This document shows, piece after piece, positions 485 through 22,886 of a DNA stretch of 43,288 nt. The stretch is from Megasphaera geminata F0357 (GTDB lineage: Bacteria > Bacillota > Negativicutes > Veillonellales > Megasphaeraceae), in the NCBI RefSeq assembly GCF_000239275.1, contig NZ_JH417605.1:51021-94308 (forward strand), read 5' to 3'. The notes under the pieces are model-generated. The model searched no databases. It was not told where the DNA came from and saw only the letters and a program-made list of their open reading frames with translations. A program made the translations under genes and the position numbers. The first letter of the stretch is position 1. Each line of letters starts with the position of its first letter.

Positions 485-510
485 CATCGCTTTAACAAAT
501 TAAAGCGATG
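485..510 (+). other. Perfect 10-bp hairpin at the 5' end of the his leader
   Basis: CATCGCTTTA and TAAAGCGATG are exact reverse complements around a 6-base loop. No T run follows, so it is not a terminator. It lies at the predicted 5' end of the mRNA, about 10 bases before the hisZ Shine-Dalgarno, so it might protect the transcript or affect ribosome access. Confidence 0.5.
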
Positions 511-533: not shown

Positions 534-1754
534 ATGGACGGGAACAGCCTGGACGGAGTAAAAATGCTGCATCATGATGAAATACGTAATTATGCACGCA
601 TTCAACGCAGATTATTGGACGTTTTCAGCCGGTACGGCTGTAAACTTGTAGAAACGCCGAATTTTGCTGATTACGATATGTGCAGCACAGTTTTTCCTGA
701 TTTACGCAAGGAAATGGTCAAGACGGTCGATGCTGACGGTACGGTTCCCGTCCTTCGCCCTGACGTGACATTGCCTATAGTGGAGACGGCGGCTCGCGAA
801 TATCCGCAGGCCCGTAAACTTTTGAAATTTGCCTATGTGAGTACGGTCTTTCGTAATTATTCCGGCCGCAGTACCTATGGCCGCGACTTTCTTCAAGGCG
901 GAGCGGAAATTCTCGGGATTGACAGCGCTGAATGCGACGGAGAAGTCATCTCCATGGCGGCCGATCTTTTGACCTCTGTCGGAGTTGAAGATATGCATAT
1001 CGACTTGGGAAATGCCGCTTACGGAAACGCGCTTTTTGATGGGAGCGGCTTAAAAGAAGAAGAAAAAAGAGTATTAAGGCGGTTATTGAGTGAGCGCGAT
1101 ATCGTGGCTTATCATGTTTTCACGGATTCATTAGCGCTGGAACAATCGTACCGTGATGTTTTGGATGCATTGCCGATGCTCTTCGGCCCTTATTCCGAAA
1201 TCTCGGCAAAGGCTCGCGCATATTGTCTGAACGGGGCTATGCACAATGCGTTAACCCGATTGGAAGAAATCAATCGTTTTCTTACATTTTCCGGATATAG
1301 AGATACCCTTCAACTCGATTTGGGATTTACCGGCCCGTTGGGGTATTATACGGATATGATATTCAAGATTTATGCAAACGGCGCATTTTGTGAACTCATC
1401 AGCGGCGGTCGTTATAATACACTTTCACGGCTGTTCGGTGTCGACAGACCTGCCTGCGGCTTCGGCATGAATATCAATATCCTCTATGAATTCATGAAGG
1501 ACGGCGGGCTTTTAAAAGATAATGAACCGGCCTCGGAGCTGGCTGTCATTTATGATCGTTGTGATGAACGGCTTGTTGCGGACGTTTTCCGCTGGCGCCG
1601 GCTCGGTTGCCGTATCGGTATATATAACAGAGAGGTTTTTATCGATACCCGTGACTATAAGAGTATCTGCCAATACAGCGACGGCGTGTACAGTAAAGAC
1701 GGTAAGGAATTGAGTGCCGCCGATATGGAAGTACTCGTACAGGAGGTGAGATGA
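534..1754 (+). CDS. hisZ: ATP phosphoribosyltransferase regulatory subunit HisZ
   Basis: A 406-residue class II aminoacyl-tRNA-synthetase-like protein without synthetase function. It pairs with the short HisG to form the hetero-octameric enzyme of the first histidine step and carries histidine feedback control. Visible are a motif-2-like region (LRPDVTLPI, FRNYSG, GRDFLQGGAEILG) and the late glycine-rich GGRYNTLSRLFG motif, as in HisS/HisZ. The anticodon-binding domain is missing, which separates it from HisS, and the next gene is the short HisG. AGGAGA at 521-526 supports the ATG at 534. It overlaps hisG by 4 bases and is the first gene of the operon. Confidence 0.93.
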   Translation: MDGNSLDGVKMLHHDEIRNYARIQRRLLDVFSRYGCKLVETPNFADYDMCSTVFPDLRKEMVKTVDADGTVPVLRPDVTLPIVETAAREYPQARKLLKFAYVSTVFRNYSGRSTYGRDFLQGGAEILGIDSAECDGEVISMAADLLTSVGVEDMHIDLGNAAYGNALFDGSGLKEEEKRVLRRLLSERDIVAYHVFTDSLALEQSYRDVLDALPMLFGPYSEISAKARAYCLNGAMHNALTRLEEINRFLTFSGYRDTLQLDLGFTGPLGYYTDMIFKIYANGAFCELISGGRYNTLSRLFGVDRPACGFGMNINILYEFMKDGGLLKDNEPASELAVIYDRCDERLVADVFRWRRLGCRIGIYNREVFIDTRDYKSICQYSDGVYSKDGKELSAADMEVLVQEVR

Positions 1755-2398
1755 TGACACTGCATATTGCTTTGGCCAAAGGGCGGATTCATAAGCAGGT
1801 AATGGCCTATCTTCAAGAGAGCGGCTATGATTTTCCGACCTATTCCGAAGAGAGCCGCAAACTGATTTTTGCCGATCGCAGCGGACAGCTTAAAGTAACT
1901 CTTGTCAAATCTCCCGATGTAGCCGTTTATGTCGAACGGGGCGCCACCGATATCGGTATTGTCGGAAAGGATGTGCTTGTTGAAGAGTGTTTCTGTGCGG
2001 ACGTATACGAAATAGCGGATCTTAATATAGGCCGCTGCCGTATGGCCGTTGCCGGTGTTGCCGGCAATGAGCCGGAGCTGACGAAACGTCTTACAATCGG
2101 TACTAAATACCCGCGTATTGCACGACAGTATTTTGAAAAGAATCATTACAGTGTTGATATTGTCAAGCTTAACGGATCCGTTGAACTGGCCCCGCTTGTC
2201 GGCTTGGCCGACCTCATCGTGGATCTTGTTGAGACGGGCAGTACATTAAAAGCCAACGGGTTGGAAGTACGGGATTACATTATGGATTTCAGCGCCCGTA
2301 TGATTTGTAATCCCGTCGCGTTTAAATTGAAGAAACGCGAGATCGAAGCGATATGTTCAGTTATGGAAAAACGCAAAGCGGCAGGGGGGAAGCGATGA
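1751..2398 (+). CDS. hisG: ATP phosphoribosyltransferase catalytic subunit, short form
   Basis: HisG condenses ATP with PRPP, the committed step of histidine synthesis. At 215 residues it is the short HisG type, lacking the C-terminal histidine-binding domain and therefore needing HisZ, which is encoded just upstream. Recognisable segments are the N-terminal LALAKGRIHKQVMAYL, GATDIGIVGKDVL, and the PRPP-binding loop VDLVETGSTL. AGGAGG at 1741-1746 precedes two tandem ATGs (1751, 1754). The end overlaps the hisD start by 4 bases, which suggests translational coupling. Confidence 0.95.
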   Translation: MMTLHIALAKGRIHKQVMAYLQESGYDFPTYSEESRKLIFADRSGQLKVTLVKSPDVAVYVERGATDIGIVGKDVLVEECFCADVYEIADLNIGRCRMAVAGVAGNEPELTKRLTIGTKYPRIARQYFEKNHYSVDIVKLNGSVELAPLVGLADLIVDLVETGSTLKANGLEVRDYIMDFSARMICNPVAFKLKKREIEAICSVMEKRKAAGGKR

Positions 2399-3687
2399 TG
2401 GAGCGGATAAAGGTGCCTGCGGAAGGATTGACATTACGGGCTATACGTGAAATTACGGCGCGCACGCAGGCCGGCGATACTGCGATACACGAGCGGACAC
2501 AGACCGTTTTGGAAGCAGTGCGTACAGGCGGTGACGCGGCAGTTCGTAAATTTACGGCGCGTTTTGACGGTGTTGAACTTGCAGATTTTCGCGTAAGCGC
2601 CGCTGAAATGGAAGCGGCCCGGGTGCAGGCGGGGGCGAATTTTATAAGTATTCTCGAAGAAGCGTGTAATAATATTCGCGCTTACCATGAACGGCAGGCG
2701 GAAACGACTTGGTTTGAAGAATGCCGCCCGGGCGTGCATTTGGGAACGAAGTTTACCCCTATTCAGCGCGTCGGTGTGTATGTACCCGGCGGTACGGCCG
2801 CCTACCCGTCAACCGTGCTTATGGATACGATACCGGCGCAGGTTGCGGGCGTACCTTCCCTTGCCGTTTTTACGCCGCCCGATCGGGACGGCTCCGTTAA
2901 TCCGTATATCCTGGCTGCCGCATCTGTCGCGGGAGTAAAGGAAATTTATAAGATTGGCGGAGCACAGGGCATCGCCGCCGCTGCGTACGGGACGGAAACG
3001 GTCGAACCGGTCTTTAAAATCGTCGGGCCCGGCAATGCCTATGTAGCTATGGCCAAACGTCTCGTTTTCGGTCTGGTCGGCATCGATATGATTGCCGGGC
3101 CCAGTGAAGTCGGCATTCTTGCTGATGACAGCGCCAATCCCGTTTGGATTGCGGCGGATATGCTGGCGCAGGCCGAACATGACAGACGGGCCGCTCTTTT
3201 CCTGGTTACGCCGAGTGAACAACTGGCAGAGGCTGTAGAAGGAGAAGTGCGGCGTCAGGTAAAAGAACTGAAACGCAGTAATATTGCAGAGGCCGCCGTC
3301 AACGATTACGGGAAAATCTTCATAACCGAAGATAAAGAACAAGCCGTAGAGATAATGAACCGTATTGCTCCGGAACATTTGGAAATACTCTTTGAGGAAC
3401 CGGCATCTTATATACCGGCTATTGTCAATGCGGGCGCAATATTCATGGGGCCGTATACGCCTGAACCGCTGGGCGATTACTTTGCCGGGCCCAATCATAC
3501 CCTGCCGACAATGGGGACCGCCGCTTTTTCGTCCCCCCTCGGCGTCTATGATTTCGTCAAGCGGTCCAGTTTACTGCAATATGATCAACAAGCTTTTACA
3601 GCGGTTGCCGAAAAGGTAGCGGTTTTTGCCGATGTGGAAGGTCTGGAGGCACACGGATTGGCAATGAGGAGGAGATTGGATGGATAA
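2395..3687 (+). CDS. hisD: Histidinol dehydrogenase
   Basis: HisD performs the last two steps, the NAD-dependent oxidation of histidinol to histidine. The translation carries the family signature: GVYVPGGTAAYPSTVLM, the KIGGAQGIAA block, GPGNAYVAMAK, the AGPSEV motif, the zinc-site segment DMLAQAEHD and the catalytic APEHLEI (Glu-His pair). The length of about 430 residues is normal. The start is at the double ATG 2395/2398 behind GGGGGGA; a farther upstream ATG at 2353 lies inside hisG and has no family similarity. It overlaps hisC by 8 bases. Confidence 0.95.
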   Translation: MMERIKVPAEGLTLRAIREITARTQAGDTAIHERTQTVLEAVRTGGDAAVRKFTARFDGVELADFRVSAAEMEAARVQAGANFISILEEACNNIRAYHERQAETTWFEECRPGVHLGTKFTPIQRVGVYVPGGTAAYPSTVLMDTIPAQVAGVPSLAVFTPPDRDGSVNPYILAAASVAGVKEIYKIGGAQGIAAAAYGTETVEPVFKIVGPGNAYVAMAKRLVFGLVGIDMIAGPSEVGILADDSANPVWIAADMLAQAEHDRRAALFLVTPSEQLAEAVEGEVRRQVKELKRSNIAEAAVNDYGKIFITEDKEQAVEIMNRIAPEHLEILFEEPASYIPAIVNAGAIFMGPYTPEPLGDYFAGPNHTLPTMGTAAFSSPLGVYDFVKRSSLLQYDQQAFTAVAEKVAVFADVEGLEAHGLAMRRRLDG

Positions 3688-4753
3688 CAGATGGATACGA
3701 AAGACGTTGCAGAAGGCGGAGCCGTATGTCGTTCCGGCCATTTCCGAGTCGATTGTCATCAATGCCAATGAAAGTCCTTACACTATCTTTGATTTTCCGG
3801 AAGTCCGCAGAGATTACGAGAAACGATTTGTTCGATTTCGTTCCTGCCGTTATCCTGATCCGTACGCGGAAGAATTGCGCCTTGCCTTGAGCGGGTATAT
3901 GGGGTGTGAACCGGGAGAAATCCTCGTGGGCAACGGCGGTGACGAAATTATCGGTCTTACTGTGAATACCTTCATCAACCCCGGTGATACGGTTTTAACG
4001 CACTGGCCGACTTTCGATATGTACGGCATTGATGCGGTCATGATCGGCGGCAGAGAGGTGCGTGTTCCCGATGAAGACGGGTTTGTACGCAACGCCGCCG
4101 CATATAGGCGGAAGGTGGAAGAAGTACAGCCGAAATTGACGGTTATCTGCAACCCCAATAATCCGACCGGCCACGTATGGTCGCTGGCTGAGGTGGAGTC
4201 GATTGCGGCGGCCGCAAAAAATCCGCTCCTCGTGGATGAGGCATATATGGAATTTGCCGCCGCCGACAGCGCTGTTTCCCTGATTCATAAATATGATAAT
4301 CTCATCGTTCTCAGAACGCTGTCCAAGTCTTTCGGGCTTGCAGGCTATCGCATCGGGTATGCCGTAGCGAATAAAGAGATGATAAAGGCCCTTTCCCTGA
4401 TGAAACCGGCATATAATGTAAATGCCATGTCTCAACTCGTCGGTCTCGTAGCTATGGATAATCGTGATAAGATCCTTGCCTATACGATTCCGCGCATTAC
4501 AGCGGCACGACGGTATCTGGCAGAGAAACTCCGCACCCTCCCGGATGTCGCCGTTTATGACAGCGCGGCCAATTTTATTCTTATCCGCGTACCTGACGGG
4601 GCCGCTGCGGTCAATGCGCTCTCCGCGGCGGATATTGCCGTGCGTTCATATAAAACGGAAGCGCTGAAAAACTGTCTGCGCCTTACCGTCACGACAAATG
4701 AAACGGCAGATCGCATTATCACTGCTTTACGAAAGGAGTACAGTCATGCGTAG
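3680..4753 (+). CDS. hisC: Histidinol-phosphate aminotransferase
   Basis: A 357-residue PLP enzyme (aminotransferase fold type I) that converts imidazole acetol phosphate and glutamate to histidinol phosphate. Key features are NANESPY near the N-terminus, NGGDEII, CNPNNPTGH (substrate and cofactor loop), the LVDEAYMEF segment and SKSFGLAGYRIGYA with Lys216 as the expected Schiff-base lysine. A GAGGAGA site precedes the ATG inside the end of hisD. The stop overlaps the hisB start by 8 bases, consistent with one tightly packed operon. Confidence 0.94.
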   Translation: MDNRWIRKTLQKAEPYVVPAISESIVINANESPYTIFDFPEVRRDYEKRFVRFRSCRYPDPYAEELRLALSGYMGCEPGEILVGNGGDEIIGLTVNTFINPGDTVLTHWPTFDMYGIDAVMIGGREVRVPDEDGFVRNAAAYRRKVEEVQPKLTVICNPNNPTGHVWSLAEVESIAAAAKNPLLVDEAYMEFAAADSAVSLIHKYDNLIVLRTLSKSFGLAGYRIGYAVANKEMIKALSLMKPAYNVNAMSQLVGLVAMDNRDKILAYTIPRITAARRYLAEKLRTLPDVAVYDSAANFILIRVPDGAAAVNALSAADIAVRSYKTEALKNCLRLTVTTNETADRIITALRKEYSHA

Positions 4754-5328
4754 TGCAACAATAGAACGGAAGACCGGAGAAACACAGATTTTACTTTCTC
4801 TCAATGTCGACGGCACGGGAATCTTCTCCGGCTCGTCCGGCATCGGCTTTTTTGACCATATGCTGCAGCTTTTTTCCCGCCACGGGTCTTTTGATTTAGC
4901 TGTTTCCGTAGACGGGGATTTAGCAGTCGATACGCATCATACATTGGAAGATTTGGCTATCGTTCTCGGTGATGCTTTAACTGAGGCGTTGGGGAACAGG
5001 GCGGGTATTCGCCGCTACGGCATGTTTTATTGTCCTATGGACGAGGCGCTGACCAGGGTTGTTATTGATCTGAGCGGCCGTCCTTATCTGGTCTGCGATG
5101 TGACCGTGCGGGCAGAGAGGATCGGTGATTTTGAAAACGGAAATGCTGTACGATTTTCTCTATGCGTTTGCCGTTCACGGCGGCATGAACCTGCATATAG
5201 CCAATCTCTACGGCAGTAACAGTCATCACATTGTCGAGTCCGTCTTTAAGGCTCTCGGACATGCGCTGCGTGAAGCCGTGTATGATGACGGAAGCGGCGT
5301 TATACTGTCGACTAAAGGAGTGCTATAA
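4746..5328 (+). CDS. hisB: Imidazoleglycerol-phosphate dehydratase (frameshifted)
   Basis: Monofunctional IGP dehydratase, the HisB type without a fused phosphatase domain. The N-terminal frame shows ERKTGET, GIGFFDHMLQLF and the metal-binding DTHHTLEDLAI. After GDFE at about 5130 it turns to nonsense, while the neighbouring frame carries on with TEMLYDFLYAFAVHGG, the second metal site NSHHIVES and the terminal STKGVL. Removing one A from the AAAA run at 5134-5137 restores an uninterrupted 193-residue protein of normal length. All flanking his genes are intact, so this is probably a sequencing error. AAAGGAG supports the ATG at 4746. Confidence 0.92.
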
Positions 5329-5943
5329 ATGAATCTTGTCATCGTCGATTACGGTGTCGGTAACCTGGCCAATGTTGTTTACGCATGGCGGCGCCTCGGA
5401 GAAAACCCGATTGTTACGGGAGATGCCGATGTTATCCGCACAGCCGATCTTATTGAGCTTCCCGGCGTCGGCGCCATGCGTGATGCCGTACGCAATTTGA
5501 AGGAAAGAAAGCTGGTTGAAGTTCTGACGGAGAAGGTTCGTTCCGGTACCTTCCTTCTCGGTGTATGTCTCGGTATGCAGGCTCTTTTTGAGTGTTCTCA
5601 TGAAGGGGGAAAGCATGAGACTTTAGGGTTTCTTCCCGGTGAAGTCGTGCCTTTCCGGACGCATCTGAAAGTACCTCATATGGGCTGGAATGAGCTGAAC
5701 TTTGTGCGCCGTCATTGGCTGGAGAACGGACTGCCGGCACGGCCGTATGTATATTTCGTCCACTCCTATCATAAGGTGCCCGTTCATACGGACGATGTGA
5801 TTGCCGCGACCGAGTACGACGGTGCCGTACCGGCAATCTGCGGCAGGGATAATGTCCTGGGCATGCAGTTTCATCCCGAAAAAAGCGGCGCCGTCGGCAG
5901 CCGTCTTTTAGAAAATATATTGACATATGTGCGGAAGGAGTAA
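5329..5943 (+). CDS. hisH: Imidazole glycerol phosphate synthase, glutaminase subunit HisH
   Basis: A 204-residue class I glutamine amidotransferase that feeds ammonia to HisF. The oxyanion-hole region ELPGVGAM, the nucleophile in GVCLGMQ (Cys80) and the MQFHPEKS pair (His182, Glu184) form the expected catalytic triad. The start follows the hisB stop directly (TAA then ATG) with AAAGGAG upstream. Its partner hisF lies one gene further on, with hisA between them, a common order in his operons. Confidence 0.95.
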   Translation: MNLVIVDYGVGNLANVVYAWRRLGENPIVTGDADVIRTADLIELPGVGAMRDAVRNLKERKLVEVLTEKVRSGTFLLGVCLGMQALFECSHEGGKHETLGFLPGEVVPFRTHLKVPHMGWNELNFVRRHWLENGLPARPYVYFVHSYHKVPVHTDDVIAATEYDGAVPAICGRDNVLGMQFHPEKSGAVGSRLLENILTYVRKE

Positions 5944-5947
5944 GGCC

Positions 5948-6664
5948 ATGATAGTATTTCCTGCAATAGATATACAGAACGGCCGTGTCGTTCGCTTGCG
6001 CCAGGGGGTTGCAGGCGCCGGTAAGGAATATTTTGAAGATCCTGTGGAAGCGGCGCGCAAGTGGTGCGATGAAGGGGCGCTCTTTCTCCATGTTGTCGAT
6101 TTGGACGGCGCCTTTGCCGGTGAACCGAAGAACAAAGACATCATCAGACGCATCTGTGAGTCCGTCGAAATTCCTGTTGAAGTCGGCGGCGGCATACGTA
6201 CGGAAGAGGCCATTGAAGAATATCTCAATAATGGAGTGAGCCGTGTTATCCTCGGTTCAAAGGCTGCGGAAGATCAGCATTTTCTCGTCGAGGCCGCGCG
6301 GCAATACGCTTCGAGCCTGGCGGTCTCCCTTGATGCGAAAAATGATGTCGTCGCGACTCACGGCTGGGTGGACGGCAGTGATAAAAAAGTCATCCCCTTT
6401 GCACTGTTTTTGCTGTCTATCGGTATTCGTACCCTTATTTATACGGATATCCGTCGTGACGGTATGTTGACAGGGCCTAATCTGGCCATGCTCGAAAAAC
6501 TGCAGCAACTGCCTTTTATTCGCCTTATTGCCTCCGGCGGTATCGGTACAATTGAGGATCTCAAGGCTTTACGGGCAATGGGGATTTACGGCGCCATCAC
6601 AGGGACGGCCCTTTACGAAGGACGGGTGACAATGGCCGAGATCCGCGCTTTGGGAGGAATGTAA
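5948..6664 (+). CDS. hisA: Phosphoribosylformimino-AICAR-phosphate isomerase HisA
   Basis: A 239-residue TIM-barrel isomerase (ProFAR to PRFAR). It shows [17 protein letters not shown] with the catalytic Asp8, the phosphate-binding [22 protein letters not shown] with the second catalytic aspartate, [14 protein letters not shown] and the C-terminal phosphate site IASGGIGT. The ATG at 5948 is preferred over the in-frame ATG at 5927 because GGAAGGAG precedes it and the family starts MIVFPAID. It is separated from hisF by one base. Confidence 0.95.
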
Positions 6665-6665
6665 G

Positions 6666-7430
6666 ATGCTGGCCAAACGAATCGTACCCTGCCTGGACGT
6701 GCGCGACGGCCGCGTTGTCAAGGGAAAACAATTTAAAAATATACACGACGTAGATGATCCCGTGAAATTGGGAGCGCTATACTCGGCTCAGCTGGCCGAC
6801 GAACTCGTCTTTTACGATATAACGGCAACACATGGAGAACGGCCTCTTTTCCTTGATATTGTCGAACGTGTCGCTCAAGCGGTGGATATCCCTTTCACCA
6901 TCGGCGGCGGTATCGGCAGCATTGATGATTTTCGTCGTGTGCTTAATGCTGGCGCCGATAAGGTTTCCGTGAATTCGGCCGCGGTCAGAAGGCCTGAACT
7001 CATTCGTGAGGGAGCTGAAAGCTTCGGTAATCAGTGTGTCGTCCTTTCCGTCGATGCCAAACGGTGCGGGCCCGGGAAATGGCAGGTCTATATCGCCGGC
7101 GGCAGAGAGAATACGGGACTTGATGCGGTACAATGGGCTAAATACGGAGTCGCCCTCGGTGCCGGTGAAATCTGTATTAACTCGATTGATGCGGACGGAG
7201 AGAAAGGCGGTTTCGATCTGGAACTGAACGGGATATTGGCACGTGAGCTGCCTGTACCGATTATTGCCTCCGGCGGCGCCGGGAAAAAAGAGGATTTTAA
7301 AGATGTTTTTCTCGTCGGCGCCGATGCAGCCTTGGCGGCATCCGTTTTCCACTACGGAGAGATATCCGTTTTTGACTTAAAGCAGTATTTGGCTGCAGAA
7401 GGAATTGCCGTGAGAGGGGTGGAAATTTAA
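6666..7430 (+). CDS. hisF: Imidazole glycerol phosphate synthase, cyclase subunit HisF
   Basis: A 254-residue TIM barrel that closes the imidazole ring with ammonia from HisH, giving IGP and AICAR. Diagnostic are [16 protein letters not shown] (catalytic Asp11), the FTIGGGI phosphate loop, VLSVDAKR with the second catalytic aspartate, and IASGGAG near the C-terminus. It resembles HisA by descent, but the CLDV start and the [10 protein letters not shown] segment assign it to HisF. The stop TAA is directly followed by the hisIE ATG. Confidence 0.95.
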
Positions 7431-8138
7431 ATGGAATTTGTCGGGATCGAATCCGTACGCTTTAATGAGATAGGCCTTGTCCCCGCCGTCATCCAAGAAA
7501 GCAAAAGCGGTAAGGTGCTCATGGTAGCCTATATGAATAAAGAGTCCCTTGCCAAAACGGTTGAAACGGGAGAAACATGGTTTTATAGCCGCAGCCGTCA
7601 GGAGCTGTGGCATAAGGGCGCCGTATCGGGACACAGACAAAGAGTTATCGCCGCAAGCGTCGATTGTGACGGCGATACACTTCTCTTTCAGGTGGAGCAG
7701 ACGGGAGCTGCCTGCCATACCGGCCGTAAGACATGCTTTTACCGGGGGCTTTGCGGCCTGCCCGGAAAAGATGATCGCAGTCTCAGCGTTTTCTCGGACC
7801 TGCAGGACAGAATAGAAAAAAAACGCCTTCATCCGACGGAAAAATCATATACTGCGTATTTATTGGAAACGGGAACGGATAAGATTTGTAAAAAAATCGG
7901 TGAAGAAGCGGCGGAAGTGATTATTGCCGCCAAAAATGTTACTGTCTGCGCCGATGCGGCACAGTTGCCGCAACTACGGGAAGAAGCCATAGGCGAGTCG
8001 GCGGACCTCTTCTATCATATGGCCGTGCTGTGGGAAGCTGTCGGACTTACTGTCCAGGATGTGGCTGCCTGCCTGGCGGCACGTTCCCGAAAAGAAGAAA
8101 ATAAAAAAGAAACCGGTCATTGTGACAAGACCTTTTAG
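7431..8138 (+). CDS. hisIE: Bifunctional phosphoribosyl-AMP cyclohydrolase / phosphoribosyl-ATP pyrophosphatase
   Basis: A two-domain protein of 235 residues. The first half is His[26 protein letters not shown], and the zinc and magnesium site [17 protein letters not shown] with [13 protein letters not shown]. The second half, from about residue 120, is the all-alpha MazG-like His[31 protein letters not shown] and the later EESIG-like and DLFYHM segments. It catalyses steps 2 and 3. The fused arrangement is common in bacteria. The HAD gene follows after 9 bases and reads as part of the same operon. Confidence 0.94.
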
Positions 8139-8147
8139 AGGTATAAC

Positions 8148-9272
8148 ATGAAAACAGTTATTTTTGATGTCGACGGAGTCCTTCTCAGTGAAAAGCGATA
8201 TTTTGATGTATCCGGGCTGGCTTTGTGGGAATGGTACAACAGCCCTCTTTTTTTAGGGATTGGTGAAGAACCCGTCATAGCCGAACCGACGGAAGAAAAG
8301 ATAGAAGCATTGCGCCGCCACTACTGGGCGGATGATGAACTTTTGCGCCGTTTTAAACGGCACGGTATCAACAGTAATTGGGATATGGTATATCTTTTTG
8401 CCGTCTGCTCTTTTCTTGTTGCCGCGCAAGGGGATGCAAACTTGTTCAGAGGCCTGAGCGCCGATTTTTCGACCCCGCCGGCCTTGCGGAAATTGGGCAC
8501 GGCATTGAGACGGCGGGCTTTTGCCATTCCGTCGGGCCGGCGTGTACTCGGCCTTTTTGAAACGCTTGTTCCGGAAGATACGAAGAAGGACGATGTTTTT
8601 TCCCTGGTCGACAAGGCCTTGTCTGGTGCGACGGCAGCCGTCTTTGCCGGTCAGCTCGGTTTACACGGGACTCTTTGGCAAAGCCTTTTTGCGTGTTTTC
8701 AAAACTGGTATTTAGGCGATGCATTTTATGCAGAAACATATGGCAGGAAACCCGATAGTCCGGGCAAAGCGGGATTCCTCACACGGGAGGTGCCCCTCGG
8801 CGGGGCCGCCGAAACGAAGGCCATGTTTATCGAGTTAAAGCGGCGAGGCTACGCTATTGCCGTGGGTACAGGCAGAGCCGCCAAGGAGGTGGAGATACCC
8901 TTTGCGGCCTGCGGCTGGCTTGATGAATTCGATGTCAGGCATATTGCCACGGCGACGGATATAGAAAAAGCGGAAAAACAACTCGGCAGGGCCTTGGATA
9001 AGCCGAACCCTTTCGTCTACTATGCGGGAGCGTTCGGAAGAGATGAGAAGTGTTATCGGGATTATATTGATCATCCCGACAAGTACAAGCAGGGTACCTA
9101 TTATATTATCGGTGACTCTCCGGCCGACATTCGATGTGCCAAGGCTATGGGCGCCGTGATGATTGCCGTTCTCACCGGATTGGAAGGAGAACGGGCAAGA
9201 CCGTTGTTTGAGCGGGAAAAAGCCGATTATATCGTCAGTTCCCTCCTGGATATCTTACCCCTTCTTCCGTAA
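8148..9272 (+). CDS. HAD-superfamily hydrolase; candidate histidinol-phosphatase
   Basis: A 374-residue HAD hydrolase. Motif I is DVDGVLL at residues 7-13, motif II is the threonine in VGTGR, motif III the lysine in KPNPF and motif IV GDSPADI, so all four catalytic motifs are present. About 200 residues lie between motifs I and II, an unusually large cap, which normally decides the substrate. The gene starts 9 bases after hisIE and a strong terminator follows it, so it is the last gene of the his operon. The operon encodes every histidine enzyme except histidinol-phosphate phosphatase, which makes this the best local candidate. That assignment is inference from context; known bacterial histidinol-phosphatases belong to several unrelated families. 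Confidence 0.8.
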   Translation: MKTVIFDVDGVLLSEKRYFDVSGLALWEWYNSPLFLGIGEEPVIAEPTEEKIEALRRHYWADDELLRRFKRHGINSNWDMVYLFAVCSFLVAAQGDANLFRGLSADFSTPPALRKLGTALRRRAFAIPSGRRVLGLFETLVPEDTKKDDVFSLVDKALSGATAAVFAGQLGLHGTLWQSLFACFQNWYLGDAFYAETYGRKPDSPGKAGFLTREVPLGGAAETKAMFIELKRRGYAIAVGTGRAAKEVEIPFAACGWLDEFDVRHIATATDIEKAEKQLGRALDKPNPFVYYAGAFGRDEKCYRDYIDHPDKYKQGTYYIIGDSPADIRCAKAMGAVMIAVLTGLEGERARPLFEREKADYIVSSLLDILPLLP

Positions 9273-9290
9273 GGGCGGGAACAGGAGCAG

Positions 9291-9325
9291 GCCATACTGA
9301 AAGCGAACGCTTCAGTATGGCTTTT
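9291..9325 (+). terminator. Terminator closing the his operon
   Basis: GCCATACTGAA...TTCAGTATGGC forms a long near-perfect stem around a GAACG-type loop and ends in a T5 run, 18 bases after the HAD stop codon. Confidence 0.9.
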
Positions 9326-9453
9326 TGCCGTTTTTCTCCTGTTTCAGCCGCTGCCGTGCAGATGCTGAAAATCCGACATCGGAACAGTTATTCCTGAAGG
9401 TATTCGTAAGGTATATACAATGCATAATCCATATGAAGAGTCTGTCTAATTAT

Positions 9454-9616: not shown

Positions 9617-12600
9617 ATGAAATCTCATTTACGAAAAGCGGAACGAACGGCTTTTTTGGTTTGCGCCGTAATTACGTGGCTGTCGGCTCCCACTTTGGCG
9701 GCGGACGGTTCGACAACGGGGGGGCGCATTGATACCGGCGATGTCGTCGTTCGGATGGATGCGGCTAAAGAAGTGGCTAAATATGAATCGCAAAGCACTA
9801 CGATTATTACAAAGGCGGATATCGAAAAGAAACAGGCCAAGTCTGTGGAAGATCTTATTTTCAGTGAAACCGGCATAACTCGAACTGTTGATTCCATGGG
9901 ACGTGTAGGTATCGCTATCCGCGGTGCCGATCCGCGGCATACGCTGATCCTTGTCGACGGACAACCGGTTATCAGTGATGTGTCCAAATACATGGGTGCC
10001 GGCGATGAAGCAATGCGTATCGGTGCGGAAAATATTGAACGCATTGAGATCATCCGTGGTGCGGCGTCCGCTAAATACGGGGCCGACGCCATCGGCGGCG
10101 TCGTCAATATCATTACCAGGGCGCCGTCGGATAAGCCGAGTTTTCAGCTGAATGCCGAAGCACGCTACCATAGGCACGACGGCACGGATGAAAACAAAAA
10201 TACCTGGCCGTCGAATTATTATTTACGCGCCGATTCCGGTAAAGTCGGTAATGTCAAGTTCAGTATTTTCGGCAGTAAGCGGGATATCATGCCTGTTTAT
10301 TCGAACGAGCGGGCTTTTACGAAAGGCTCTGTCCTGAGCGGCTGGTACGATGATTTCCGTCCGTCTCTGCGCTATTACGGTACGTCCAAGAATATCGGTG
10401 CCGCGCTGAAGGTCGAGATTGACAAGGATCATGCCATTTCTTTCCGCGGCATGAAAGAGAAAGAGGACATGCAGCGTCGGAATAAAAACTCTACAGGATT
10501 TATTGAATCATACTTTGAACCCATGCAGATTTTCAAACGCACCATGGATCGGGATACGTACGGCCTGTCCTATACAGGCCGCGGCGGCAAGGCGGATTGG
10601 AAACTCGATGTGGACTACGGCAAAATGAAGGAACGTGATACGGGCGTTACAACTTATTACAATAAAGGGCGCGACGCTTATTCTGGGCAGAACGGCTTGG
10701 TGTCGCTGGACTGGCTGGAGCATAAGCAGCTCGGCGTTAATGCCGTCTTAAACTATGCGCCTAACGGCAGGCACCTTTTTACCTACGGCCTCGGCTATAC
10801 GGAAGAAAAGGCTGACGGTACACGTCTGAAAAATGCGCCCAAGCGCTGGATACGCTCCATCGATCCCTGGGACTATGAACGGAATCTTTATGTCCCTATT
10901 GAACAGGGCGGAAAATCCGGCGAACCCGATTCGAGTATTCATAACTATGCGTTTACGTACGGAGCCGACGGCGTTCTCCAGTGGAATCGCAATCTGGAAT
11001 ACTACAACAGCGAAACGGCGCCGCCTTTTCCTTATGAAGAATATAAGGAATGGACCGGTACCAGACTGCCGCATAACGGAACGACCCTCCCGGCCAACAC
11101 GATTGAACAATATGAAGGGTGGGGATATTTTCCTGCCGGCACCTATCGGAACGCACTGCAGGAGGCACTGCATAACGGCTCCATCACCCAGGCCCAGCAC
11201 GACCGCCTGCTTGCGGCGGGAGCAAAGCATAAGGCCTTTGCCCAGATACTGAATGATCTGAATCCGGGGTATGATACACACTATCGGGATATTGTCGATA
11301 TTTACTACGGTGGCAGTGATGTTTCCACAGCGTTTACGCCAGAAGAGCGTCGGAACCTTAAGTATAACGGATCGTATTTTAAGGAAAACTATGACTCCCG
11401 CAAAAATATGCTTAGCGGCGGTGAAGCGCACCTGCGGAAACGTCACTTTTTTATCCAGGATGCATGGCAGGTCAATGACGATACGATACTTACTCCGGTC
11501 CTGCGCCTCGATAACAGCGATAAATTCGGCAGCCGCTTTACGGCACAGCTCGGCATGACCCGCAACTTGGGCGGCAACCCGCACCGCCGTCTGAAGGCCA
11601 ATATCGGGACGGGCTACGCCGAGCCGGGACTGGGTGAACTCTATTATAACTGGGAAATGTACGGTTCCGCCGGCGGCAGCCATTACGGCTGGTACTGGGT
11701 GGGCAATCCGAATCTGAAACCGGAGAAATCGTTGAATTTCGATATAGGCATTGAAGGAGAAAATAAGAAGACTTTTGCCAGGGCTTCCGTCTTTCACAAT
11801 GTCATCGATGACTATATGACGACGTATTTTGTCGGACAGCTTATTGACTTCGGTTCGTATTTGGATCCGAACAGTTCCCTGAGTCTGGATCGGCTGTATA
11901 CGTTTAAGAATATCGGCAAGGCTGAAATCACGGGCATCGAAGCGGAAGTGCAGCACCGCTTTAACAGCCGCTGGTCGGCCAAGCTGGGATACGCCTGGCT
12001 CCATGCCGTCAATAAGAGCGATCCCGACATGCCGCGACAGCTTCTGGACCGGCCGCAGCATAAAGTGGATATCAGCCTGAACTATGAAGATAAAAAGCAC
12101 GGCTGGAAGGCGGCTCTCTGGGGAGATTACTATATTCACATGCTGGACAGCAATTCTGTTGCCAATACCTATACGGCCGCCGATTTTAATGCCGATACGG
12201 GAGAATGGAAAAAAAAGAACCCGAACTACCGCCCAAAACCTTCGGTATTTGGAATCTTATGGTCCAGAAAGAGTTCGGTAAAAACCTTACGGCGTACGTA
12301 GGCGTCGACAACCTCTTCAACTATCGCGACGACGACCGGGCCTATCAGGACCGACTCTACCGTCTGGGCGTGAATATGAAGTTCGGTCCCGCCACGGCGG
12401 AAGAAGCGGCGGCAAAGGCCGCGGCCGGGACAAAAATGAAGAACTCCGCTGTACTGACGGCGGAGGGGACAAGGGCTGAAGCTGTAAACGCTGTGGCAGA
12501 CAGTTGGTTCCTCGACCGCCCGTCCGACAAAGATGCCGGCCGTAAGCGAGGGGATATCAAGCTTATCGGCGACTACCGCATACGCAGCGGCATGTGGGGC

Positions 12601-14564
12601 GGCCAGGACCTGGCCGGCATGAAAAAATCCGCTACCGTATCTCTTGACGATGAAGCCGTACGCAATATGAAAGATGAACCGGGACACGGGCTGGAACAGC
12701 GACTCCGTCTCGGCGCGGATATTCAGCTGGGAGAGACTGAAAACCTCGTTGTCGAGGGATCCAGCGGCAATGCGGTGGATACGAAATACACGGCCGCGGA
12801 CAGGCGCGGCATCCACGGCGTGCGCCTGGAGCGGGCCGAACTCAGTAAAAAGGCGGACAAGTGGGACTTCACCGTCGGTCGCCTGACGGAACGCATGGGG
12901 ACGACAGGTTACTGGTTCGGCAAAGAATACACCGGCGCCCGTGCCGTCTGGACCGACAGTACCACGCAGGTCCGCTTCGGTTACGGTGATTTTTCCTTCT
13001 CCACGGGTATCAACGACTCGGCCTACTCGCATGTGGAAAAGGGCATGTTTATGAGGGCCCCCACTCTGTTTGAAGTATTGGGTGTTGGAAAAGAAGGCAG
13101 TTCTTTGCGGCCGTATACGGGATATACGGTACAGCCCGATTACAGGACGCAGCAGCTGGACTACTGGGACAAGTTCCTGCATGCTACGGACGGCCTGACC
13201 GACCCTGTAGCCAAGGCCGACGCGCGTCTGGCCGTTATTTCCGAGCTGGCTAATCTGCTCAAGGGAGTAGGAGAATCGGGTAATAATATTTATACCGGAA
13301 AGGATTACTACAACGAGAAGTTCCTGAAAGCCAACCGGCACGGAAGTGATTATGATGATGACAGCGGTATTATTACAAATCCCAGGATTGCCTTATATTC
13401 AATTGAAAACAAATATGAAGGATACGGCGCTGATATGATTATCCGTAAATCGGACGGTACGACAGTAAATCTTAAAAGCAAGAAAGCGGCACAGGCCGAA
13501 TTCAAGCGGCCCGGAGATTATCCGGATTACAAAAAAACATATTACCCGATTCTCTTATCGGCTATTGGCGCGGTATGGGGATACAGCCCATTGAAGCGCC
13601 CAGCTTCGGAGATATCTTCGGGCCGGACGGCAAGGCGAAGATTTACAGCTATCTGAAGTCCATTACGAATGCCGTAAAAGCGGAATATGCAAAGCGCGGC
13701 GAAACGATTACTTACGTTGACGATACCGGCAGGGAGCTGACGGAGCAGGAGCAGTTGGATAAAATGTATATCAACTTTGTAGGTTTGGGCCAACCGGCGA
13801 CGTATATCGGCGGTACGGCGGTCGTTACCGACTTTATCGCCAATTTGATCACTTGGGCCCGCTATGATCCGACCAACGGCGCCACGAATCTGCCGCTGAG
13901 CGGTCTGCCGGAAAATATCCTTGCCGTCGGCACCTTTGTCAAACATGATGTCATTCCCGCTATCGACAGGGCCGCCTATATTCAGGTGCGCCGGAAGGTT
14001 GCGGACAATTTCGGCCTGAACGCATGGTATCTCCGTTCCTTCGGAGACGGCTTCCGTGTGCAGGAAAAAGAGCTCAATGTGGCCGATGTTTTCGGCCTGG
14101 GAGCGCAATACAGGGTGGGGACCGATGCCTTCGTTTCCTTTGACTGGGGGCTGAACCGCGCCGAAACGGGGCGCTACTACCACGGCGGCCGCGGTGCATG
14201 GGGTGATTACACGGGCGGCGGTTCGAGCCCGACCTTCTGGGTGCTGCGTTTCGATGTGGGCCGTGCCGATACGGACGTACCCGGATCGTGGCATGCATTT
14301 GCCGATTACAAATCCTTTGAACACGGCTCCTTCCTCGGCGGCAACGGTACGGAAGGTCTGCCGGACCGTTATCTCGACGGGATCCGTTCCTTCACGCTCG
14401 GTGCGGGATATGTGCCGGCGAAGAACTTCCTTCTGGAAGCCTTTTATACTTTCGGGGCCAGGAGCACGGGACGGCGCGGGGTCATCCACGGCGGTGACAG
14501 ACTGAGCAGTGAAGCGTTCACCCTCGGTGATTATACGCGCATCCAGGCTACTTATAAGTTCTAA
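9617..14564 (+). CDS. TonB-dependent receptor fused to a second porin-like beta-barrel (frameshifted twice)
   Basis: The signal peptide ends near residue 28 (SAPTLA). A TonB-box-like DVVVRM and a plug domain follow (SVEDLIFSETG, IAIRGADPRHTLILVDGQPV, ERIEIIRGAASAKYGADAIGGVVNI), then the receptor barrel, whose last strand ends LYRLGVNMKF at about residue 923 (base 12384). Instead of stopping, the frame runs through an Ala/Lys/Glu-rich linker into a second domain of about 670 residues. That domain has alternating strand patterns (WDFTVGRLTERMGTTGYWFG) and ends IQATYKF, a second barrel-closing phenylalanine. The junction lies inside one open frame, so the fusion does not depend on repair. Two single-base losses interrupt the gene: one in the A run at 12235-12238 and one near 13566-13580. 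Repaired length is about 1649 residues. Iron, haem or cobalamin uptake is plausible from the receptor family and Fur-like box; the ligand is unknown. Confidence 0.85.
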
Positions 14565-21917: not shown

Positions 21918-22886
21918 ATGTATCACATACGTGTCCTTACAGGACATCAGGATGAAGACGATTTCGGAGAGCGGTTGAGCGATATTGCCGAAGTGGAATA
22001 TTGCTCAGCCGCGGAAGATGAAGAGTTGATAGAGCGGCTGGAAGATGCGGATATCGTTATTTGTGAAGATGAACCGCTATCCGGAGCCGTGTTGAAAGAG
22101 TTGGACGATTTAAAGCTTATCATCGTCTTAGGCGAAGACGCTTCCAACCTGGATTTGATGGCGGCGGCGGAGAGACATATCAAAGTCCTTTGCCTGAGCG
22201 ATTATTTTGAAGAGGACGTGGCCGATCACACTTGCGCCATGATTTTGTCGTTATTACGCCAAATTCCCGAATATGCGAGTGATGTGCGCAATAACGGCCG
22301 TTGGCAGTTCGGCTCCGTTCCCTGGCCGCTTCATCGTGTCAGCGCAAATCTTATCGGCATTGTCGGCTTCGGACGCGTCGGGCAGCTTGTTGCGGCACGG
22401 TTAAAACCGTTCGGCTGCAACCTACAGGCGTATGATCCCTTTGTCAGCGAAAAGATCATGCTTGAGCATGATGTCAGACCTGTTGATTTTGATAAGCTTT
22501 TAAAGACGAGTGATTTGATCACCCTGCATTTGCCGCTGGAAGAATCGACGCGGAACATGTTTCAGGAAGAGCAGATGGAAACGATGAAAAAAGGAGCCAT
22601 GCTCGTTAATTGCGGCAGCGGGGGCCTTGTCGATGAGGCTGCGCTTTATCATGCCGTTGATGACGGGCATATCCGCAGCGCCGCCTTGGATACGTTGACC
22701 ATGGAGCATCCGAGCGCCATGTTTCTGGAAATGCTCGGACGTCCGGAATTTTTACTCACACCTGACGTGCGGGCTCATTCGCTTGAAGCGGAAAAAGAAA
22801 AGTATGATGATGCCGAACGGTACATCCGCTTGTTTGTCGAGGGAAAATATGACGGTATCCCTTTCATTACCTCTTCTGAAGAATAA
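21918..22886 (+). CDS. 2-hydroxyacid dehydrogenase-like NAD-binding protein with altered catalytic residues
   Basis: A 322-residue member of the D-isomer-specific 2-hydroxyacid dehydrogenase family (SerA/LdhA fold). The NAD-binding loop GFGRVG (150-155) and the acceptor aspartate in AYDP (173) are in place. The catalytic triad is not. The usual arginine of the NxxRG motif is serine (NCGSGG, Ser234) and the usual histidine of TPH is aspartate (TPD, Asp283); only the glutamate in MEHP (263) remains. It may bind NAD or a ligand without the normal chemistry, or be a regulator such as CtBP-like proteins. The next gene follows after about 40 bases. Confidence 0.8.
   Translation: MYHIRVLTGHQDEDDFGERLSDIAEVEYCSAAEDEELIERLEDADIVICEDEPLSGAVLKELDDLKLIIVLGEDASNLDLMAAAERHIKVLCLSDYFEEDVADHTCAMILSLLRQIPEYASDVRNNGRWQFGSVPWPLHRVSANLIGIVGFGRVGQLVAARLKPFGCNLQAYDPFVSEKIMLEHDVRPVDFDKLLKTSDLITLHLPLEESTRNMFQEEQMETMKKGAMLVNCGSGGLVDEAALYHAVDDGHIRSAALDTLTMEHPSAMFLEMLGRPEFLLTPDVRAHSLEAEKEKYDDAERYIRLFVEGKYDGIPFITSSEE

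What the first reader, a model, noticed from the sequence alone, without database searches (positions are those of the whole stretch)
8148..9272. Candidate histidinol-phosphate phosphatase of a new HAD type, last gene of the his operon
The operon encodes HisZ, G, D, C, B (dehydratase only), H, A, F and IE. The only missing activity is histidinol-phosphate phosphatase. A HAD hydrolase with all four motifs starts 9 bases after hisIE and lies before the operon terminator. Its roughly 200-residue cap between motifs I and II is not what I recall for the HisB-N HAD phosphatase, and it is unrelated to PHP (HisJ/HisK) or inositol-phosphatase-type HisN.
Basis: inference. Interest (0 to 1): 0.62.

Follow-up and report, generated by a model that had tools for sequence, protein, structure and literature searches.

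The report
Probable new histidinol-phosphate phosphatase gene
The last gene of this gut bacterium's histidine operon very probably encodes the one enzyme that seemed to be missing, and it belongs to a phosphatase family whose Staphylococcus and Bacillus members sit beside serine-making genes instead, so an enzyme of serine synthesis seems to have been turned to histidine synthesis.

Summary
The ORF is real: 374 aa, 9 bases after hisIE, followed by a strong terminator, behind a HisR-like operator. It is not HisB-N, PHP (HisJ/HisK), IMPase (HisN) or classical SerB. Its full-length relative is PDB 1QYI, a Staphylococcus protein of unassigned function (phmmer 5e-51; structure Z 42.8).

Comparative evidence supports a histidinol-phosphate phosphatase. 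Among 29 hisB+ genomes of the order (from 200 of the class), 12 carry this gene and no HisJ; the other 17 carry HisJ and not this gene. It directly follows hisIE in 9 of 14 carriers. Two close relatives that lost hisB but kept serA also lost the gene.

Twist: in 17 of 18 Bacilli loci the homologue sits near serA, away from his genes; this appears to be the predicted phosphoserine phosphatase SerB4 (Ashniev 2022). Negativicutes serC-serA is instead followed by a PspA-like gene. Both substrates share an amino-alkyl-phosphate scaffold, and SerB-like histidinol phosphatases are known in Proteobacteria (Price 2018). So this is a new variant of a known kind, an independent recruitment.

Unresolved: no activity is shown, two his-less Dialisteraceae keep the gene, and GmhB could moonlight.

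The parts
488..507 (.). HisR-like operator CGCTTTAACAAATTAAAGCG upstream of hisZ
   Evidence: exact TTTA-N6-TAAA core, fitting the Firmicutes HisR consensus printed in PMC9413887 (passage seen). Core exact upstream of hisZ in 9 of 11 relatives' operons, one mismatch in 1, none in 1.
534..1754 (+). hisZ
   Evidence: tRNA-synt_His 3.1e-57
1751..2398 (+). hisG
   Evidence: and synteny
2353..3687 (+). hisD (ORF as listed; true start may lie downstream)
   Evidence: and synteny
3680..4753 (+). hisC
   Evidence: and synteny
4698..5325 (+). hisB, dehydratase only; reading frame broken near 5150 in this assembly
   Evidence: IGPD 1.5e-43 for the first part, conserved remainder in another frame
5329..5943 (+). 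hisH
5927..6664 (+). hisA
   Evidence: and synteny
6666..7430 (+). hisF
7431..8138 (+). hisIE
   Evidence: PRA-CH 1.4e-35, PRA-PH 9.1e-16
8148..9272 (+). HAD phosphatase of the 1QYI family, proposed histidinol-phosphate phosphatase; helical cap about residues 16-218
9289..9335 (+). intrinsic-terminator-like stem-loop and T-run closing the operon

Best explanation
The gene encodes the histidinol-phosphate phosphatase (step 8) of this Megasphaera-like bacterium. A HAD enzyme of the 1QYI family, with a roughly 200-residue helical cap over the Rossmann core, uses D7 as nucleophile, D9 as general acid/base, T241 and K285 to hold the phosphoryl group, and D323/D327 to bind Mg2+. It removes phosphate from L-histidinol phosphate, and HisD then oxidises the histidinol. 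Related Bacilli proteins, encoded beside serA, probably act on L-phosphoserine. The two substrates share the form R-CH(NH3+)-CH2-OPO3. In the Megasphaeraceae/Dialisteraceae branch the family was therefore recruited to histidine synthesis in place of HisJ, while a PspA-like phosphatase encoded after serC-serA serves serine synthesis. Shown here: gene, operon position, conservation, exclusion with HisJ, fold, motifs. Inferred: substrate, residue roles, direction of recruitment.
For: Same-strand position 8-64 bases after hisIE in 10 operons including the window. In the sampled order, of 29 hisB+ genomes 12 have the gene and none of them has HisJ over cut-off; 17 lack it and all 17 have HisJ (naive Fisher p 1.9e-8, relatedness ignored). 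In genus g4, G135 has the gene, no HisJ and a Megasphaera-like operon, whereas G050, G097, G101, G147, G153 and G186 have HisJ and lack it. No IMPase in 12 of the 14 genomes with the full-length gene, including one-contig G038 and G192. Megasphaera relatives G113 and G162 lack hisB and the gene but have serA. serC-serA followed by a PspA-like gene in 10 of 10 Negativicutes clusters examined. Purifying selection: dN 0.08, dS 0.62 between L018 and L019. Precedent: SerB-like histidinol-phosphate phosphatases, PMC5764234 (passages).
Against: No activity data. His-less G177 and G183 keep a divergent homologue (31-33% identity) with all motifs and lack long serA. In G189, G192 and G219 the gene lies away from the his operon without an exact HisR core upstream. 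In the Bacilli it follows serA: 4 of 18 carriers have no hisB. Hardly any position separates the his-linked from the serA-linked group; W60 versus F60 is the clearest, so a substrate change is not visible in sequence. GmhB is present in the window's genome, and HisB-N was sought only there. IMPases exist in G073 and G180. In Megasphaera sp. NM10 (L124) the gene is frame-broken after about 24 codons. The 29-genome pattern reflects only about two or three independent events.
Confidence: 0.82

Rival explanations
1. Bifunctional enzyme: the family acts on both L-phosphoserine and L-histidinol phosphate, and operon placement only reflects which pathway needs it more. (Overlaps with the best explanation: it would still be a histidinol-phosphate phosphatase.)
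For: The two substrates share the amino-alkyl-phosphate scaffold (stated in PMC5764234). Hardly any position separates his-linked from serA-linked proteins. Ten his+ Bacilli carriers lack HisJ.
Against: Negativicutes have a PspA-like gene after serA in 10 of 10 clusters, so serine need not depend on it. All ten HisJ-less his+ Bacilli have an IMPase-family gene that could act as HisN.
Confidence: 0.3
2. A phosphoserine phosphatase that merely sits in the his operon; another enzyme does the histidinol-phosphate step.
For: 17 of 18 Bacilli loci have it near serA. No classical SerB over cut-off in any of 25 genomes. PMC9026213 predicts a HAD 'SerB4' in Staphylococcus (passages).
Against: G113, G162 and G174 have serA but not this gene and have the PspA-like gene. 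The gene's presence follows hisB and excludes HisJ.
Confidence: 0.08
3. GmhB (C40:33015-33455 of G000), a HisB-N homologue, moonlights as the histidinol-phosphate phosphatase and the operon HAD does something else.
For: Over the TIGR01656 cut-off; GmhB and HisB-N are covered by one HAD subfamily model.
Against: It sits among heptose/LPS genes and scores best as GmhB (150.9 bits versus 47.8 for hisB_Nterm). It does not explain why HisJ is absent exactly where the operon HAD is present.
Confidence: 0.06
4. The PHP protein at G000 C51:26088-26561, beside a HisC-like aminotransferase, is the histidinol phosphatase.
For: PHP domain (4.2e-12) and a HisC-like neighbour.
Against: Best NCBIfam match is CehA/McbA; HisJ model only 16.8 bits against a cut-off of 133. 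It lies in a 27-33% GC surface-polysaccharide-like cluster in a genome whose his operon is 51% GC.
Confidence: 0.02

Closest known systems
PDB 1QYI (Q8NW41, structural genomics target ZR25, function unassigned; from Staphylococcus aureus by recall)
   Same: Full-length homology (5.3e-51); same fold including the large helical cap (Foldseek E 7.5e-27, TM 0.88; VIA Z 42.8 over 366 residues)
   Different: Staphylococcus homologues lie next to serA and a class V aminotransferase, not in the his operon
'SerB4', tentative HAD phosphoserine phosphatase of PMC9026213 (passages only; the match of that family to this one is my inference)
   Same: HAD protein with an added domain, beside serA and serC3 in Staphylococcus and Bacillus, as for the homologues here
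   Different: The window's protein is in a his operon; its clade is separate from the Bacilli clade (100/99 support)
SerB-like histidinol-phosphate phosphatases of Proteobacteria (Price 2018, PMC5764234, passages; PA0335 of P. aeruginosa seen only as a reference-list entry)
   Same: HAD histidinol-phosphate phosphatases that resemble phosphoserine phosphatases
   Different: Similar to phosphoserine phosphatases by the paper's account; the window's protein has no match to the SerB model. Their sequences were not compared here
HisB-N (TIGR01261/TIGR01656)
   Same: HAD superfamily, same proposed reaction
   Different: Window protein only 13.9 bits versus cut-off 84.15 for TIGR01656, through motif IV alone; large cap
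HisJ/HisK (PHP) of the order's hisB+ genomes without this gene
   Same: Same proposed step; encoded at the other end of the his operon, upstream of hisZ, in the four operons examined with both (L114, L115, L118, L119)
   Different: Unrelated fold and family; never found together with this gene in the sampled order

Membership tests
HAD superfamily | Motifs I-IV (DxD, T/S, K, acidic pair) | tested here: met
   D7, D9, K285, D323, D327 invariant in 32 rows, T241 nearly so; Pfam HAD_2 8e-8
1QYI family | Full-length sequence homology including the cap | tested here: met
   residues 1-369, E 5.3e-51
1QYI family | Same fold over the whole chain | tested here: met
   Model pLDDT 96.1; 366 residues aligned, Z 42.8
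'SerB4' predicted phosphoserine phosphatase | Gene beside serA/serC | tested here: not met
   Window gene is in the his operon; no serA/serC hit beside it (only a distant dehydrogenase at 21984-22835). Met by 17 of 18 Bacilli loci for serA
'SerB4' predicted phosphoserine phosphatase | Activity on L-phosphoserine | not testable with these tools
   No assay
Histidinol-phosphate phosphatase (EC 3.1.3.15), as a function | Located in or co-occurring with the his operon and replacing HisJ/HisN/HisB-N | tested here: met
   IMPase present in 2 of 14 carriers; HisB-N tested only in G000
Histidinol-phosphate phosphatase (EC 3.1.3.15), as a function | Hydrolysis of L-histidinol phosphate | not testable with these tools
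   No assay
HisB-N | Match to TIGR01656/TIGR01261 over cut-off | tested here: not met
   TIGR01656 13.9 bits versus 84.15; TIGR01261 not listed at E 10
HisJ/HisK (PHP) | PHP domain | tested here: not met
   no PF02811 match at E 1
HisN (IMPase) | PF00459 domain | tested here: not met
   no match at E 1
Classical SerB | Match to TIGR00338 | tested here: not met
   not listed at E 10
Proteobacterial SerB-like histidinol-phosphate phosphatases | Sequence similarity to those proteins (PMC5764234: at least 45% identity among themselves) | not tested
   Their sequences were not fetched

The most novel reading that the evidence does not exclude
The whole 1QYI/SerB4 family, Staphylococcus included, is a dual phosphatase for 2-amino-alkyl phosphates that serves serine synthesis, histidine synthesis or both according to where the gene sits. 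Histidine operons of Megasphaeraceae captured it and expelled HisJ, so the same missing step would be filled in HisJ-less Staphylococcaceae as well.
Probability: 0.25. Interest if true: 0.68.

Novelty: new variant of a known kind. Interest (0 to 1): 0.52.

Why it matters
Histidinol-phosphate phosphatase was one of the two steps most often left at low confidence in automated pathway reconstruction: 42 of 148 prototrophic microbes in GapMind (PMC7311316, passage). If confirmed, this gene closes the step in Megasphaera and his+ Dialister relatives, which would otherwise be called incomplete. It also gives a likely function to a family with a solved structure and no assigned role (1QYI), and adds an independent case, outside Proteobacteria, of histidine synthesis borrowing an enzyme that looks like a phosphoserine phosphatase. 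One complementation test can settle it.

Tried and rejected
Rejected: classical SerB, HisB-N, PHP and IMPase membership of the protein. Rejected as the histidinol phosphatase: the PHP proteins of G000. C29 lies in a 1082-aa open frame and looks like DnaE by length alone; C51 is in a polysaccharide-like cluster; C40 looks RNase-AM-like by inspection and was not scanned.

Tried without result: an exact HisR core upstream of the solo Dialister-type genes, absent in G189, G192 and G219, with only one-mismatch cores at G177 and G183. Positions that would explain a substrate change: only 4 columns passed, of which W60/F60 is the clearest. Excess divergence of the gene in his-less G177: 59% falls to 45%, but neighbours fall too (rsmI 79 to 63), so not decisive. 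Literature for 1QYI, MW1667, Q8NW41: the listings shown held no paper on the protein's function (for '1QYI' 20 of 36 papers were listed, for the other names 10 of 23). A search for Megasphaera with histidinol-phosphatase gave one paper, whose passages name HisJ only; its supplements were not readable here. For SerB4 one paper.

Rows dropped: L124 (frame-broken) and L142 (first 45 residues identical to L141) were left out of alignment A3 and the tree; L144 (21% identity, Anaerolineae) was not used. In the 200-genome HAD search, 39 genomes had a match but 25 of them only a short motif IV match, and these were not counted as carriers. A miss in the structure library is no evidence of a new fold; only chains ranked by Foldseek were compared.

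Full report
What is there. The ORF at 8148-9272 is a 374-residue HAD protein that begins 9 bases after the hisIE stop. The operon hisZ-G-D-C-B-H-A-F-IE-HAD starts behind a site at 488-507 that fits the Firmicutes HisR consensus (consensus from a passage of PMC9413887) and ends in a stable stem-loop with a T-run at about 9289-9335. hisB carries only the dehydratase and its frame is broken near 5150. Since serA and serC are also frame-broken in the same 88%-complete assembly, I take these as sequencing indels rather than gene loss.

What family. Pfam sees only general HAD domains; no NCBIfam model passes its cut-off. By sequence the single strong solved relative is 1QYI (5.3e-51, residues 1-369). 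AlphaFold2 on 32 sequences gave a confident model (pLDDT 96.1, pTM 0.91). Foldseek and VIA-align put 1QYI far ahead of all others (TM 0.88, Z 42.8, against Z 19.3 for the next). The other listed chains align over about 140-230 residues, so the large helical cap sets this family apart among the chains compared. Motif residues D7, D9, T241, K285, D323 and D327 are conserved. Their chemical roles are taken from general knowledge of HAD phosphatases, not from a test here.

Conservation of the operon position. Of 200 genomes of the class (completeness at least 85%), 14 have the full-length gene. It follows hisIE directly in 9 of the 14, counting the window; in G195 it lies about 1.3 kb further on, behind an ORF that looks like a cation-diffusion transporter by eye. 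In G189, G192, G177 and G183 no his gene was detected within the stretches fetched around it; in the first three it precedes a conserved holB-type cluster.

Exclusion with HisJ. In the same 200 genomes, hisB was found in 169 and HisJ over cut-off in 158. In the window's order there are 29 hisB+ genomes: 12 with this gene and without HisJ, 17 with HisJ and without this gene. There are no exceptions. A Fisher test that ignores relatedness gives 1.9e-8, but kinship reduces this to roughly two or three independent events. One is telling: G135, in a genus whose other six hisB+ sampled members have HisJ, carries this gene, lacks HisJ, and has an operon closer to that of the window (HisF 65% identical, against 52% in the two sister genomes examined, G050 and G186). 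The operon seems to have moved with its own phosphatase. In the four HisJ-bearing operons examined, HisJ lies upstream of hisZ.

Other known phosphatases. IMPase (HisN type) is absent from 12 of the 14 carriers, including the single-contig genomes G038 and G192, and present in G073 and G180. In G000 itself IMPase has no match. One protein over the TIGR01656 cut-off exists there, but it is GmhB by score and by its heptose/LPS neighbours. HisB-N was not sought in the other carriers. The PHP proteins of G000 do not pass the HisJ model.

The serine connection. A scan of named genomes gave 21 loci. In 17 of the 18 Bacilli loci (all but L135) serA lies within about 2 kb of the gene, often followed by a class V aminotransferase, and no his gene was detected in the fetched flanks of up to 9 kb. 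Of these 18 genomes 14 have hisB, 4 have HisJ, and all 10 that have hisB without HisJ have an IMPase. Four carriers have no hisB. So in Bacilli the gene follows serine, not histidine. PMC9026213 (passages) had tentatively named a HAD 'SerB4' beside serA and serC3 in Staphylococcus, Brevibacillus and Bacillus; that this is the same family is my inference. In the Negativicutes, by contrast, serC-serA is followed by a gene whose best NCBIfam match is phosphoserine phosphatase PspA (185 bits, below the cut-off of 350; one representative scanned), in 10 of 10 clusters examined. G113 and G162, same-genus relatives without hisB, have serA and the PspA-like gene but not the HAD. Hence in this genus the HAD goes with histidine, not serine.

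Why this makes chemical sense. Price et al. 2018 (PMC5764234, passages) note that phosphoserine and histidinol phosphate share R-C(NH3+)-CH2OPO3, and propose SerB-like histidinol-phosphate phosphatases in four Proteobacteria, with mutant fitness data for three. The present case would be a further recruitment, from another HAD family. The tree separates Negativicutes (15 rows) from Bacilli (17 rows) with 100/99 support.

Against the reading. No assay exists. Two his-less genomes of the Dialister-type family keep the gene with intact motifs, though on long branches of 1.3 and 1.35, against 0.16-0.46 for their hisB+ kin. Faster evolution of their neighbouring genes explains part of that (G177 only). 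For fairness, HisJ is likewise kept in hisB-less G081, G093, G121 and G162, so retention after loss of the pathway is not peculiar to this gene. Hardly any residue separates the his-linked and ser-linked groups, which leaves room for a dual enzyme. Megasphaera sp. NM10 has a frame-broken copy.

Verdict. A histidinol-phosphate phosphatase is the best explanation (0.82, of which a part may be bifunctional). It is a new variant of a known kind: the step is classical and SerB-like HAD enzymes for it are known, but this family has not, in the listings and passages seen from my ten paper searches, been tied to histidine.

Noticed in passing
window 4698-5325: hisB is frame-broken near 5150; serA and serC of the same assembly are frame-broken as well, which points to indel errors in the assembly.
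   Followed up: partly
window 9617-14564: A TonB-dependent receptor-like coding region is split over three overlapping ORFs in different frames, perhaps for the same reason.
   Followed up: no
L012:6973-9343 (G000 C51): A HisC-like aminotransferase, a CehA/McbA-like PHP protein and a phosphoribosyltransferase-like protein sit together in a 27-33% GC surface-polysaccharide-like cluster; a small pathway of unknown product.
   Followed up: partly
L116:7607-8461 (G162); also G081, G093, G121: A full HisJ homologue remains in genomes without hisB, so HisJ may have another role there or histidinol phosphate may arise otherwise.
   Followed up: no
L106 (G177), L107 (G183): Intact but divergent HAD homologues in small genomes of the Dialister-type family that lack both hisB and long serA; their substrate is unknown.
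   Followed up: partly
L124:9001-10115 (Megasphaera sp. NM10): The HAD gene after hisIE is frame-broken at about codon 24 while the rest stays conserved; sequencing error or recent loss.
   Followed up: no
L182-L191: serC-serA-PspA-like clusters: the last gene, a histidine-phosphatase-superfamily protein, probably fills the phosphoserine phosphatase gap in this order.
   Followed up: partly
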